Assembly: GCF_000264995.1 (NCBI RefSeq)
Contig: NW_006767433.1
Location: 2,557,074 to 2,621,073, forward strand
Direction: 5' to 3'
DNA length: 64,000 nucleotides
Origin: Punctularia strigosozonata HHB-11173 SS5
Lineage: Eukaryota; Basidiomycota; Agaricomycetes; Corticiales; Punctulariaceae
Below the pieces are notes generated by a model that saw only the letters and a program-made list of their open reading frames with translations, was not told the origin of the DNA and did not search any database. A program made the position numbers and the translations under genes. Positions within the stretch are counted from its first letter, which is position 1. Each line of letters opens with the position of its first letter. Of this stretch, positions 28,847 to 35,400 are shown one piece after another.

Positions 28847-28905
28847 CGTGTCCATGATGTACCCGCCGCATACGCTACGCTTGTCCCCGTTCTCGTGTTT
28901 GCACT

Positions 28906-29752
28906 TCAGTACATACCACCGCTGTTGTTGCCTTTGGGAGAACGAAGCTAAGAACGGGAACATCAGTTGATGACAAGCTCCAGTCTTCGTTGCGCGTACC
29001 TTCGCGATGTTTTTGTGAACGATGTCCGTTAACACGGCATAGATGTTGCGAAGATCGTGCAGGTGTTGGCGCGCGAGATACAGTTGCCTTTCATCCTGCT
29101 CCCTCACAGCACCCTGCCCATGTGGTTACAAGGTGGATGTATGAACATCGGCTGATCACGTACCACGTAGTCCTCGACATTGGGGTACTTGATGCGTTTC
29201 GAGCAGAGCTTGGCTCGATAAACGTGATGCTGACGAGCGAAGTCGCGTAGGTTGTACGCACTCTCCTGGGAGCGGTGTAGTTCGTTCAGAACCTCTGAAA
29301 GTTGTCGTCAATCTTGACTGACAAACACACAAATACGGTACCACTGGCCTTCTTGCACTTGGACGCCGAAATTATCGCCGTCTTCGATTCTGCAGGCCGT
29401 CCATCAACTGACGCAAGAGTAAGAGTGGCGCGTCGCACCTCGGCATATTAAGGTTCACCCATAGTTTGACTCGGTCGCAACAGTCCACAAGTTGTTCGCA
29501 TTCTCTCTTGATGAGATCTTGAACCTTTTCGAGTCGCTTATTGGATAACACTTGCTCCGCATACCGAGCACTGCTAGGATCCGTATTTGCGGGGGTGCCG
29601 TTGCTGGCAGAGATTTTGCGCTTTTTGGTCCCTGGTTCATCAGAGGTGTCCTTGGGTGCGGGTGGAGGGTGAACGGTAACATCTGTGAATTCGTTGACAT
29701 GGGAAATATGAAAGGGCGAGGTGGGTGAAGACGCCGCATCAATCATTTGCTG
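28906..29752 (-). pseudogene. PA28/REG proteasome activator, C-terminal part cut off from its N-terminus
   Basis: Exons 29746-29439 (open up to 29752), 29389-29349, 29294-29164, 29113-29000 and 28947-28906 encode the C-terminal 211 residues of a REG-gamma-like 11S activator: SPFHISHVNEFTDV, KKRKIS, VKLWVNLNMPRIEDGDNFGV, VQEEVLNELHRSQESAYNLR, RIKYPNVEDY, EQDERQLYLARQHLHDLRNI and KNIAK, ending GGMY. The activation loop and C-terminal helices are there. The first helix, needed for the heptamer, is not upstream on this strand. It lies 0.85-1.0 kb to the right on the other strand. One donor (29348-29347) is GC instead of GT (GAAG|GCCAGT), either a GC-AG intron or a decayed site. The remaining frame is open and could still be translated from 29746, but such a protein would lack helix 1. 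Confidence 0.88.
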
Positions 29753-29824
29753 ACGGGGTCTTCTTGTGGCGTGGCTACACTCACGTGACTATTTCTGTGC
29801 TCCGCAAGCCGGCACTGGCTCGGC

Positions 29825-29934
29825 TTGAGCGTGCCCCATTCGGTTACCATAATAACAGGCAATTAGGAGCGGGGTTCGATCCAAGATCCCTGAAATTGGA
29901 GCCCAGACGTGACAACCGCTAGGCTATGGGACAC
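29825..29934 (-). repeat. tRNA-derived SINE-like repeat, copy 1
   Basis: Read on the minus strand, the copy opens with a tRNA-like head. A perfect RNA polymerase III A box, TAGCCTAGCGG, lies at 29926-29916, and a near-perfect B box, GGATCGAACCC, at 29882-29872. The spacing between them is tRNA-like. The head cannot close an acceptor stem, so it is not a working tRNA. It is followed by a short unrelated body and a tail at 29848-29825 that is identical over 24 bp to copy 3 at 32055-32032. That is the classic layout of a SINE. Confidence 0.65.
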
Positions 29935-30357
29935 TGGTTGGGTATCCATCCAGAACATTATCTCCTGTTTGGCATGCGCAAATTCGAGTCCCCACTGCGC
30001 TACTTTTAGAGCTCGCCATGTCCCGAATTGCTTCCACCACCATTCTCTCCACCGATAGGCAGAATCAGGCAGGCTTCAAGTGCTTGGCGCACGTACAAGG
30101 ATCTTGTCCGCTGCATCCAGGACGTGCTAATAAAGAACCTGGAAGAATTTCTGAGAGCTCTGAAGTCCCCGAACAGGCAAACAATGGGAGCAAGCAATGA
30201 GAATGGCAGGAACATGGACAAACCGAGCACGGAGACGGAGACGGGGATGTGAACATAGTCGGGATCTGGACCCGATTGAGACGACAAGGAGTGCTCTGGT
30301 GCACAACTAGGTACACTGAAGTGTATTAGGCGACGGTGAGCTGTGAAGCGTCTCGGA

Positions 30358-30522
30358 GAGCTCCGATCCCATTTTTGCCCCGAAAATCGTCAATTCGGGG
30401 CCATGTCTGATGTCAAATCCCCGAAATTCGGCCTCTTGGGACCTTCACCGGAACCCCGAAAATGGCCGAAATCGCCTCTTTGAGGGATCGGAGCTCTGGT
30501 GGGGTTCGCACCGGTCCTATTA
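30358..30522 (-). repeat. SINE-like repeat, copy 2, with a 13-bp inverted repeat
   Basis: On the minus strand a tRNA 3'-half-like piece (GGTGCGAACCCC, a B-box variant at 30511-30500, followed by ACCAGAGCTCCGATCC) leads into a body with several CCCCGAAA/TTTCGGGG blocks. A stretch at 30485-30518 matches copy 3 (32176-32209) at 31 of 34 positions. GAGCTCCGATCCC at 30358-30370 and its exact reverse complement at 30484-30496 bound the body, so the RNA could fold into a long hairpin. The repeat ends about 75 bp upstream of the PA28 N-terminal start codon. Confidence 0.6.
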
Positions 30523-30594
30523 CGCGTCTGACGCGCCAGAAAGACCGTCGAGGAATTCATCTTCACCGCGGGGCCGCAAGCTCAACTTCCAACC

Positions 30595-30760
30595 ATGACG
30601 GCAAAACTAGACAAGGAATTGAGCTCTAAACTTGAGGTGGAAACTTATCTATACTTATGACCAACTGGATCATGCTAACAAGAATTCGCAGGAGTTCAAC
30701 AAATCAGTTGCCGCCACCGCGGACGAGGTCATCTTCCGCGTATTCCCTTCCAAGGTGCTG
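30595..30760 (+). pseudogene. PA28/REG N-terminal fragment on the opposite strand
   Basis: Exon 1 (30595-30636) reads MTAKLDKELSSKLE. After a 55-nt intron with GT..CAG ends, exon 2 (30692-30760) reads EFNKSVAATADEVIFRVFPS and KVL. This matches helix 1 of PA28/REG proteins, where a Lys/Glu-rich helix is followed by the pattern [FA]-FPxK[IVL]L. After codon 37 the match stops and the frame soon ends. These are the residues missing from the C-terminal part at 28906-29752. Splice sites are intact, so the fragment looks recent rather than decayed. It has its own upstream region in the inverted segment and might still be transcribed. Confidence 0.82.
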
Positions 30761-32031
30761 CCAGTTACTGCGTCAGTTTCCATGTATCTAACGCGTGTTA
30801 TGTAGATTTTGTACGATACATTGACGTTTGCACAGATGCTAAGTCTGACGCCGCCATAGAGAACTAATAGCCCGTTCAGTCTTGTGCATGAAGGCGTAGG
30901 CGTTGCAACCCATGAGCTGATACATCGCACATGCATGTAGAATTGCATTATATGCATAATATCAAGTGGTACAAACATATGATATGCAAGAACTGGGAGT
31001 ACAGAAGCTGTTCCGCGGCTCAAGTTGTATGTTTCCACGGTCGTATGTTTCCAAGGGCAACGGTAACGCCACCGTAGGTCGTTAGGGGTTGAGGTAACAC
31101 CGTAGAGTAGCCTAGTACTATGTACAATATCCCTGAGAGTACGAGAGACGAAACGAGCCCGAGTGTGTGCCAGGAAGACCGTGGGAAATCCAGAGTGACA
31201 GACTATTCGGGATGTCGAGCGAGAGCGGCTGGACGTAGCCCTTAACGAAGGCTTCTAAGAGTGTTCCGGTAGCTTAGTTTTTAAGGGGATAGCGATTTTG
31301 TAGTGCGTAGCAAACACTATGTTGAAAATGACTTGATTTCACTTAGTTGAACTTAAATAGCACACCAATTGCTTGGGGGACGATAAGACATTATTTTGAG
31401 ACCGTCAGGACATATGTTATGGGCTTACAAAGGTATTATATCGTCAGGAGGCCCGTATCTAGGTACACAGACGAGTCACAATAAAACTTCTAGGAGGGAA
31501 GGATAGGAAGAGGAAATTCGTTCTGGAGATAACTAGGGCGCCCAGGGTGGACTCTCGAGCGCTGGAGACTTGAAGAGGAACAGGAAGAACATTAAAAAGT
31601 GTATAGGATGTATAGGATGGTATTACTTAGAGTCGGATAGGAGGTGTCGAGCGAGGACGGGGCGCGGTGATTCCAGAAAGGAAAGATTCCCACACCCAAT
31701 TAGGCAGGTGGCGGGGCTTCGCTCGCGTGGCCGCGTCGGGCGTCGGGCGCGTCAGGAGGCCGAGGGTGCGTCGCTCACGGAGATCTCGAGACTGGATTGC
31801 TCGTGTGCTGTCGTATCTTGTGCAACAATTTGTTACGATCTGTTATCGCCATAACAATACTACCCTACGATATCGAGGGCGCGACACTCACTTCGTGTAA
31901 AGCAGCGGGTGCATATAGTAGTACTATTACTCTGCATCAGCGGGGTTCCAGAGGTCCACCGCAGCTTAGATTGTGCCCACATGGCAGTTGTTGAGCTCCG
32001 CCACCCGGCATCGGGTCCGAACTCCGCGATT
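30761..32031. other. Gene-free, repeat-rich stretch
   Basis: About 1.3 kb without a coding frame I can support. It changes from AT-rich (30761-31640) to strongly GC-rich (31640-31790). It contains a short tandem of GTATAGGAT units at about 31598-31620, a duplicated CCGTAG-containing piece (31065-31110) and two copies of TGTCGAGCGAG (near 31215 and 31645). I see no terminal repeats, protease, reverse transcriptase or transposase, so I do not assign an element family. Part of it must be the old flank of PA28 and the promoter side of TAF1. Confidence 0.4.
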
Positions 32032-32217
32032 TTGAGCGTGCCCCATTCGGTTACCGTATGTTATCGGAGCAGACCAGGATGTAACATTTTGCCCTCTACC
32101 CCCATGTTTTCGGGGTTTTGGTATCGGAGCTCGCGCCCGTAAACGGGCGTTTTTCGGGGATTTTGGTGGCTGTGTGGATCGGAGCTCTGGCGGTATTCGC
32201 ACCGGTCCTCGCGTAAT
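32032..32217 (-). repeat. SINE-like repeat, copy 3
   Basis: On the minus strand it starts with a tRNA 3'-half-like piece (B-box variant GGTGCGAATACC at 32203-32192, then GCCAGAGCTCCGATCC) matching copy 2. It has a body with CCCCGAAAA blocks and ends with the 24-bp tail identical to copy 1. Copies 1 and 2 share nothing long with each other, but copy 3 links them: head and body as in copy 2, tail as in copy 1. It lies 235 bp upstream of the TAF1 start codon. Confidence 0.6.
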
Positions 32218-32451
32218 GTCATTCTCCCGCGATCCACAGCCACAACGCCCAATGCCTGTGTCTCTGTACGCTTCGTTCATAGTGCTCGTCAGCAACAACC
32301 ACGACGTGCATATCTGCCCCTGTACATCGGCCAACGCGCTCTTTCTGGGGCTGACCGTTAGTGGCACTGCTACGCTTGGTTACTGCAGGATACTACAATC
32401 ACCGCCGAGGGCTAGCTGTTCGTGTCGCCGGCAGACTTCAACGCTACCAAG

Positions 32452-35400
32452 ATGTCTAACCACGAAGAGAACGATGTGATTGGGGCGCTTACGGGCTTCT
32501 CTCTCGATCATGTTCTTGCGGGAATGTCCCTGCCCTCATCCTCGGGCCTTTCCAACCAGCTCGGAATAGCTGGCTTATCCGCTCTGAATTCGTCTCAGAT
32601 TTACAAAGACGATTGGGAAGAAGATGGCGCTGTTGGTGCTGGGGAGGGTCAAGACTGGGAGGACGAAGTGGATCGGGAACTGCAGGATGAGGGCTCAGAG
32701 CTGGGCGGCATGGTGAAGATGGAAGCCGAGTCACCCAGCGCGCTGCCGCAGAGGCAAAAGAGAACACGGATCGTTCGACGCCTGGTGGAGCGGCCTAAGT
32801 CCGTGTATGAGCGGTTTCCCGCATTCGAAAAAGAAAGGGTCCTGGACTTCACCGAATTGTTCAAGGGTCGAACAGTCAAGAAGTCGCGGCTTTCTAAACG
32901 ACCGTTCCAGAGTCAGTGCATCCATGCTAGTCGTGTTCATGGCACTCACAGATTCCAGTCGAGACTGCCTACCCCCGTAAGAGGGACGTTCATAGGGGGT
33001 TCTTGGAGGCGGTGGTGGGTGATGCGCAACGTCAGGTAGAACACAAACGAGCAGAAGAGGTGGTTGCCGCAGGAAGCGTTGATGAGGACCTTCGTCGCGC
33101 TCTTGACGTACGTTCTTCCGGTCAAAATTCTTATCATTGTCTGACTCGTGGCTGGGCAGCAACGCGAGCGTGTAGGGACACCGTTGTCCTTACCGCTGAA
33201 CGATCGCTCCTTCGACTTGGTACTACTGTCCAACTGGGAAGAACAAATCATGTACGAATCCAAGATGGACATGGACGAAGACGCGCGATCCCATACTGCC
33301 GCGGATCTCGCCCCTACAACCCAGACAAGCCTGACGAATCCCGTCAACAAGACCTTGGAGTCGGGAGATTGGACGCAAAGTATCATCTGGGGCCCAAAGG
33401 TGCCTTTCCGCGATTTCACACAGCTGGAGTTCAACCACGAGGACGACGTTGTCCCCGAAGAACGACAACCAGGTGGGCAGTTCTCCTGCATCTCGGGTCC
33501 CTTTTTTGACGAGTCGCGGACGCAGAGTGGCATCGTCCAAGAAAGCGTTTCCGTACTGACGCTGCGCACCGAGACAAGTTCAACTTGTCGAACGACCAAT
33601 ACTACGAACTCGCTAAAGACGGAGGCCGGCATCGCGTCCGCCAAACCTTCGGTCAGCTCGTGGTGGAGCATGCGTACCCAGCACAGAAGTTACAACTGCC
33701 CTTTGTAAGCAAAGCCGATTACTCTCTGTATCCTTCACGTCTACAACTACAATTTCAGTACAAAACTCGTCTTTCCAAGCAAGAAGGACGATCCTGGCAT
33801 CGCCCAGCCATGCAATTCCCCGCCAACATCGAACTTCGGTTCAGCAAAGTGCGCACAGCCAAGAAGAAGAAGGACAAGGCAGGCCGCAAGCTCGGTAAAG
33901 GTGGAAATGTTGGTGAAGGCTTGCGCAAGACTGGGGATCTGAGTTTACAGGATACAAGCAACTTTGTGTTGTGGGAGTTTTCGGTAAGCTTTATCAATCT
34001 GCCAATGCTCGCCACGTCGTTGACTTGTCCTCAGGAGGAACACCCCCCGATCATGTCCAGTTTCGGCATGGGAAGTATCCTCGTCAATTACTACCGAAAG
34101 AAGGATGAAAAAGATGAACACATTCCAAAGGTACCGGATATGCCCTAGGAAGCTCCTTACAAAAACTCACTCGTTGCAGTATGACCTCGGCACGCCGTTC
34201 GTATTGGAGCCTCAAGATGAATCACCTTTCATGAAGTTTGGGTCTGTTGCTCCAGGACAGACAGTCCCTGCTCTATACAACAATCTTCTTCGTGCACCTT
34301 TGTTCAGACACAAGCCATACCCCACGGACTTCCTCGTCATCAGGTATGACTCGTATTCACGGCTTCCCACTCATATTCACGGCTTCCAGGAGCACGCACA
34401 AAGGCGAGGCGAGATACTTCATTCGCGAGATCAAGAACCTCTTCGTGGTTGGCCAGACATACCCTGTTACCGAAGTTCCCGGGCCTCATTCTCGCAAAAT
34501 AACCACGACAATCAAACACCGCCTTCAAATCATCGCCTTCAAGCTGTTGAAAAAGAGCCAAGGGGAGCGATTGAAAATTACTCGATTGATGAAGTATTTC
34601 CCAGACCAAAACGAGCTTCAAATGCGACAACGTCTGAAGGTACTATCACCCGCAGTTCTGTTTGGATTGTTCCCTTAACTCGTGCTGTTAGGGTTCGTTG
34701 AAGGAATTCATGGAGTATCATCGCCGCGGGCCGCATCAGGGATTTTGGAGGTTGAAGGAAACATGGTCGATTCCCTCAGACGCTGACATGCTCAAGATGG
34801 TCGGTCCGGAGCAAGCTGTGTTGAACGAAAGCATGCAGGTCGGGCAACGGCATCTGCAGGACCTGGGTTATAGCAACGAGACGGGCGAGGGAGATGAATC
34901 CAACCTTACGGTGGAACAGCAGCTTGCCCCTTGGATCACGACGAAGAACTTCTTACTCGCTACTCAGGCCAAGGCCATGCTTAGGCTGCATGGAGATGGT
35001 GATCCAACAGGGCGGGGAGAGGCCTTCAGCTTTCTACGTGTTTCCATGAAGGACATATTTGTTAAAGCGGGCGAGGATTACGAGCAGAAACTTGGTCAGT
35101 GTTATCTATGATTCGCGCTCTTCCGTCGAAGACTCATTCCGCGTAGCCGAGGCGGAGAATAGGCCGAAGTCGGCGCACCGGTACAATGTTGCGGAGCAAC
35201 AGCTGATCTACAAGTCGGAAATCGAACGCATTTGGAAGGCACAATTTGACTCTCTTAGTCGTAAGGACGAACCGCTGCTTACCCCCGAAGATGAAGAGAA
35301 AAACGCCCCGCCAAAGAACCCGTCTCAGCAGCGGCGTATGTCGACCGTCGGCCCGGATGGCTCGTACGCTGCAGCCATTTCACCCACTGCCGGCAGGTAT

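What the first reader, a model, noticed from the sequence alone, without database searches (positions are those of the whole stretch)
28906..30775. A PA28/REG proteasome activator gene split by a simple 1-kb inversion
The C-terminal 211 residues lie on the minus strand (29746-28906) and the missing N-terminal 37 residues on the plus strand (30595-30760). Each half ends where the family match ends, and reversing 29753-30760 restores gene order and strand. Both fragments keep good splice sites, so the event looks recent. A 6-bp inverted match sits at or near the breakpoints. The result should remove helix 1 of the heptameric 11S ring. Alternatives are a duplicated N-terminus left by another event, or an assembly error.
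Basis: partly seen in the sequence, partly recalled or inferred. Interest (0 to 1): 0.85.

Follow-up and report, generated by a model that had tools for sequence, protein, structure and literature searches.

The report
Proteasome-activator gene broken by small inversion
In this fungus the only gene found for the PA28 proteasome cap is cut in two because a 1.1-kb stretch, running from the gene into a jumping element beside it, was flipped; it is probably a recent natural loss of the gene by an ordinary mechanism.

Summary
The window holds the only PA28/REG gene found in the 33.6-Mb genome. Its C-terminal part is on the minus strand (29749-28906, 5 exons, open frame); its N-terminal 38 residues are on the plus strand (30595-30763, 2 exons).

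The inversion is supported independently of PA28. Two nested DNA transposons lie beside the gene, and the same event cut them. Reversing 29754-30865 (1,112 bp) makes TE-A, an IS3EU-like element, contiguous as in its copies on contigs 12 and 3, and turns its 6-bp target-site duplication back into a direct repeat. TE-A sits inside TE-B, an 8-bp-duplication element.

The joints share no base, which suggests end joining.

Order: TE-B and TE-A first, inversion last. TE-B is young (7 private changes in 665 positions). Most likely outcome: loss of PA28, while PA200 remains. No reads, transcripts or fungal relatives were available, so assembly error, expression and function of the remainder are untested.

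The parts
28906..29749 (-). C-terminal part of PA28: five exons, 212 residues to the stop (211 from the first ATG at 29746)
   Evidence: spliced translation; PA28_C E=1.1e-55; PDB matches
30595..30763 (+). N-terminal part of PA28: exons 30595-30636 and 30692-30763, 38 residues
   Evidence: weak on its own; single copy
29754..30865 (.). inverted segment, 1,112 bp; joints 29753|29754 and 30865|30866
   Evidence: TE-A continuity and duplication; best of 16,000 breakpoint pairs
29754..29851 (-). 98-bp left end of TE-A (IS3EU-like), carried along by the inversion
30866..32058 (+). rest of TE-A up to its right end
29852..29857 (-). one copy of TE-A's 6-bp target-site duplication, now reverse-complemented
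32059..32064 (+). other copy of TE-A's 6-bp target-site duplication
29852..30518 (+). larger piece of TE-B, ending at its right terminus
32059..32209 (-). smaller piece of TE-B, ending at its left terminus
30519..30526 (+). 8-bp target-site duplication of TE-B
32210..32217 (-). partner 8-bp target-site duplication of TE-B

Best explanation
A two-break inversion of 29754-30865 split the only PA28 gene found. Shown from sequence: one break lies in PA28 after exon 2 (in intron 2 or the first bases of the next exon); the other lies 98 bp inside an IS3EU-like transposon (TE-A) that sits in another transposon (TE-B) beside the gene. The joints share no base and the transposon side lost none. Inferred: two double-strand breaks were repaired by end joining, not by recombination between repeats or by transposase acting on the element's ends. 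The N part keeps 68 bp of single-copy DNA before its start codon but now runs into TE-A; the C part now has transposon DNA upstream. No single transcript can encode the whole protein, so the strain is most likely a natural PA28 null. A fragment started at 29746 would lack the residues that match PSME3 5-39, most of helix 1.
For: TE-A stretches 29754-29851 and 30866-32058 are adjacent to the base in the C12 copy, and C3 reads the same across that point. TE-A's 6-bp duplication is present as a direct repeat in C12, C3 and C2, and inverted in the window. 6 of 6 TE-B copies printed have no TE-A at that site. 29754/30865 is the best of 16,000 breakpoint pairs. PA28 order and strand are restored by the same reversal. 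One PA28 gene in the genome. No N in the window.
Against: The N part is a weak match by itself (E=0.28 in the PDB, below the Pfam cut-off). No reads, transcripts or relatives. The stretch between exon 2 and the C part would make an intron of about 106 nt, longer than the gene's others (49-55 nt), so the exon boundary there is unsettled. The C-part frame is fully open, as it would be in a working gene, although at this age that is also expected without selection.
Confidence: 0.85

Rival explanations
1. Assembly error: a piece of about 1.1 kb was placed in the wrong orientation and PA28 is whole in the organism.
For: The region is repeat-rich; other stretches fetched from this genome contain runs of N, which may be gaps or withheld letters.
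Against: No N in the window. Both joints are gapless and lie at no repeat boundary: the gene side is single-copy and the TE-A break is 98 bp inside the element. The two TE-A pieces are exactly reciprocal, with nothing lost. The segment is not flanked by an inverted-repeat pair: the only inverted pairs of 16 nt or more found in 28900-32500 have both arms outside the joints' positions.
Confidence: 0.08
2. Aberrant transposition by IS3EU or TE-B transposase made the inversion.
For: TE-A is at one breakpoint, and TE-B copies are up to 98-99% alike in their left 150 bp.
Against: The break is 98 bp inside TE-A, not at an end. No base is shared at either joint, and the gene side has no transposon match.
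Confidence: 0.05
3. The truncated C part is still a working gene, transcribed from transposon DNA, starting at 29746 or from a new 5' exon.
For: Open frame with family-like C-terminal tail; [quoted passage not shown]
Against: No in-frame ATG between 29749 and the stop at 29789. With 7-12 changes in 665 positions since TE-B arrived, only about 0.3-0.5 stops would be expected in the C part anyway, so the open frame is no evidence. Helix 1 forms an outer belt of the ring.
Confidence: 0.06

Closest known systems
PA28gamma/REGgamma (PSME3), 11S proteasome activator
   Same: C part matches over nearly the whole PA28_C profile; N part aligns without gaps to PSME3 residues 5-39.
   Different: Gene is in two pieces on opposite strands.
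IS3EU DNA transposons of fungi (PMC12730594, passages)
   Same: 6-bp duplications, TAYGG..CCRTA termini; the C2 relative has integrase-core and alpha-kinase matches on opposite strands.
   Different: Inverted repeats are 26-27 bp here, while the paper gives over 30 bp for its TET+ rust families; the window copy has lost any coding capacity seen in the C2 relative.
Gene disruption by a small inversion with one breakpoint in a neighbouring transposon (recalled general class)
   Same: One break in the gene, one in adjacent transposon DNA.
   Different: Here two nested transposons with target-site duplications give base-exact breakpoints from one genome.

Membership tests
PA28/REG (11S activator) | PA28_C domain (helices 2-4) | tested here: met
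   E=1.1e-55, profile 2-143 of 145
PA28/REG (11S activator) | PA28_N domain (helix 1) on the same chain | tested here: not met
   N part is on the other strand, 30595-30763; 19.1 bits against a cut-off of 21.2
PA28/REG (11S activator) | Heptameric ring that activates the 20S proteasome | not testable with these tools
   needs protein
Simple inversion | One reversal restores interrupted neighbouring features | tested here: met
   TE-A continuity, TE-A duplication, PA28 order
Simple inversion | Present in reads and in other isolates or absent from relatives | not testable with these tools
   no reads or fungal relatives held
IS3EU transposon (TE-A) | 6-bp target-site duplication | tested here: met
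   4 of 4 copies: C12, C3, C2 and, inverted, the window
IS3EU transposon (TE-A) | Termini TAYGG..CCRTA | tested here: met
IS3EU transposon (TE-A) | Inverted repeats over 30 bp (as given for the paper's rust families) | tested here: not met
   ends match for 26-27 bp with at most one mismatch, then diverge; hence 'IS3EU-like'
IS3EU transposon (TE-A) | IS3EU transposase and alpha-kinase in opposite orientation in a long relative | tested here: inconclusive
   rva_4 integrase core 17.4 bits (cut-off 26) and Alpha_kinase 14.3 bits (cut-off 21.3), opposite strands, C2 copy

The most novel reading that the evidence does not exclude
The flip turned PA28 into a working 11S protein without most of helix 1, transcribed from transposon DNA: a ring activator that dispenses with the outer helix-1 belt, or an altered proteasome regulator.
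Probability: 0.05. Interest if true: 0.7.

Novelty: new member of a known kind. Interest (0 to 1): 0.36.

Why it matters
[quoted passage not shown] How such losses begin is seldom seen. This locus looks like a loss caught early: both halves are still readable and the breakpoints are known to the base. If the inversion is polymorphic, strains with and without it would be a ready comparison for what PA28 does in a fungus.

Tried and rejected
Rejected: (1) The segment as plain intergenic DNA; most of it is transposon. (2) My first guess that the break fell at about 30758/29756 within a codon (note); the start of TE-A homology puts the right break at 30865. (3) A tRNA-derived element, suspected by eye; ARAGORN in its bacterial setting and Rfam at gathering cut-offs found nothing in the window; the permissive Rfam mode was not run. 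(4) The 6-bp inverted match as a cause. (5) The genome-wide PF02251 search as a test for a second N-terminus; it found nothing, including the exon known to be here, so it is uninformative.

Led nowhere: relatives in viral contigs and genome contigs; 9 and 27 stretches matched a pattern and none was a relative, as expected for viral and prokaryotic collections. Paper searches on PA28 with basidiomycetes and with Cryptococcus each listed one and the same paper, seen only in the listing. The searches were seen as listings, except PMC7915322. The first 100 bases of L069 were looked at and not used.

Papers: PMC4453063, passages and section 13; PMC7915322, passages; PMC12730594, passages; all others, listings only.

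TE-A is therefore called IS3EU-like. The age is now given as a range of 7-12 changes in 665. The probabilities of the main reading were not changed by this.

Full report
Setting. Window G+C is 55.1% and the gene's introns are 49-55 nt. PA28 is reported present in Basidiomycota and absent from over 100 ascomycete genomes (PMC4453063, section 13). I therefore take the organism to be a basidiomycete; that is inference. The ATG at 32452 is taken as the start of that gene by eye; its first open stretch matched no Pfam family.

The observation. Five minus-strand exons between 29749 and 28906 give 212 residues and a stop, 211 from the first ATG. PA28_C matches at E=1.1e-55; in the PDB, Plasmodium PA28 matches at 1e-33 and human PSME3 at 1.5e-32. 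Plus-strand exons 30595-30636 and 30692-30763 give 38 residues. These align without gaps to PSME3 residues 5-39, but at E=0.28, and match PA28_N at E=0.0013, below that family's cut-off. The genome has no other PA28_C match, and neither part has a second copy. The genome-wide PA28_N search misses even this exon and is uninformative.

The surroundings are transposons. TE-A has copies at C12:959311-961485 and C3:75633-74287 and a 14.5-kb relative on C2. In the window it matches as the reverse complement of 29754-29851 and, separately, as 30866-32058. In C12 these stretches are adjacent to the base, and C3 reads the same across that point. TE-B matches in the window as 29854-30534 and as the reverse complement of 32059-32210.

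Proof of the inversion. TE-A has 6-bp duplications as direct repeats in C12, C3 and C2. In the window the same kind of duplication is at 32059-32064 and, reverse-complemented, at 29852-29857, as an inversion between the two ends must leave it. All 6 TE-B copies printed lack TE-A at that site. TE-B's own 8-bp duplication is at 30519-30526 and 32210-32217. Of 6 loci with both TE-B ends, 5 share a duplication, the window included; L050, which contains N, does not. As a control, 16,000 breakpoint pairs were scored by the match of the transposon flanks to C12 and C3. The pairs share flanks and so are not independent; the six best all have the left breakpoint 29754.

Breakpoints and mechanism. The joints are 29753|29754 and 30865|30866. 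No base is shared between the joined partners, and the transposon side lost nothing. The gene side is single-copy. The TE-A break is 98 bp inside the element. Two breaks repaired by end joining fit this; recombination between inverted repeats and transposase action at the ends do not. This is inference from sequence. CTGACG/CGTCAG is irrelevant: 22 of each in the window, right member about 90 bp from the break.

What was broken. The gene-side break lies after exon 2. Whether it is wholly in an intron is unsettled, since the implied intron of about 106 nt is longer than the others. One C-part intron starts GC, either a tolerated variant or an early sign of decay. A review describes the N-terminal portions of helix 1 as a belt round the ring and helix 2-helix 4 contacts between subunits (PMC7915322, passages). 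A C-terminal product would lack most of helix 1 and keep the activation loop and tail. No in-frame ATG lies between 29749 and the stop codon at 29789-29791.

Age. TE-B and TE-A were in place before the inversion, whether TE-A entered TE-B here or they arrived together. The window's TE-B has 7 private substitutions in 665 positions among 8 aligned copies and differs from its nearest copies by 12 of 665, so the inversion is at most about 1-2% old in neutral divergence. TE-A has 29 private of 824 positions among three copies. That is more than TE-B, and I read the excess as history before insertion in a lineage not sampled. At 7-12 changes per 665, about 7-12 substitutions and 0.3-0.5 stops are expected in the 639-base C-part coding sequence without selection (3.9% of substitutions make a stop). 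The open frame is therefore no evidence for function.

What the transposons are. TE-A fits IS3EU in its 6-bp duplications, TAYGG..CCRTA termini and, in the C2 relative, integrase-core and alpha-kinase matches on opposite strands (PMC12730594, passages). Both domain matches are below Pfam cut-offs. Its inverted repeats are 26-27 bp, against over 30 bp in the paper's rust families. TE-B is classed only as an inverted-repeat element with 8-bp duplications.

Other activators. PSME4_C (PA200) matches at C1:1563259-1563519 without a stop, and at C1:1596797-1597166 in three pieces, one of them with an in-frame TGA.

Assessment. The inversion is very likely real in the sequence as given; loss of PA28 function is likely but untested; the event is a well-documented instance of a known kind.

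Noticed in passing
G000 C1:1563259-1563519 (L067) and C1:1596797-1597166 (L068-L070): Two places match the PA200/Blm10 C-terminal domain, 33 kb apart; the second is in three pieces and one piece has an in-frame TGA. It may be a decaying or intron-split second PA200.
   Followed up: no
G000 C2:1249199-1263666 (L064, L065): A 14.5-kb IS3EU-like element with 26-bp inverted repeats and a 6-bp duplication, with weak integrase-core and alpha-kinase matches on opposite strands.
   Followed up: partly
L050 and L051 (G000 C1:4627740 and C1:3803990): Two TE-B copies 0.8 Mb apart differ at 2 of 679 positions and share one 8-bp flank but not the other; L050 holds 16 N, so this may be a duplication, a rearrangement or an assembly matter.
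   Followed up: no
window 29348-29295: The second intron of the C part starts GC instead of GT.
   Followed up: no
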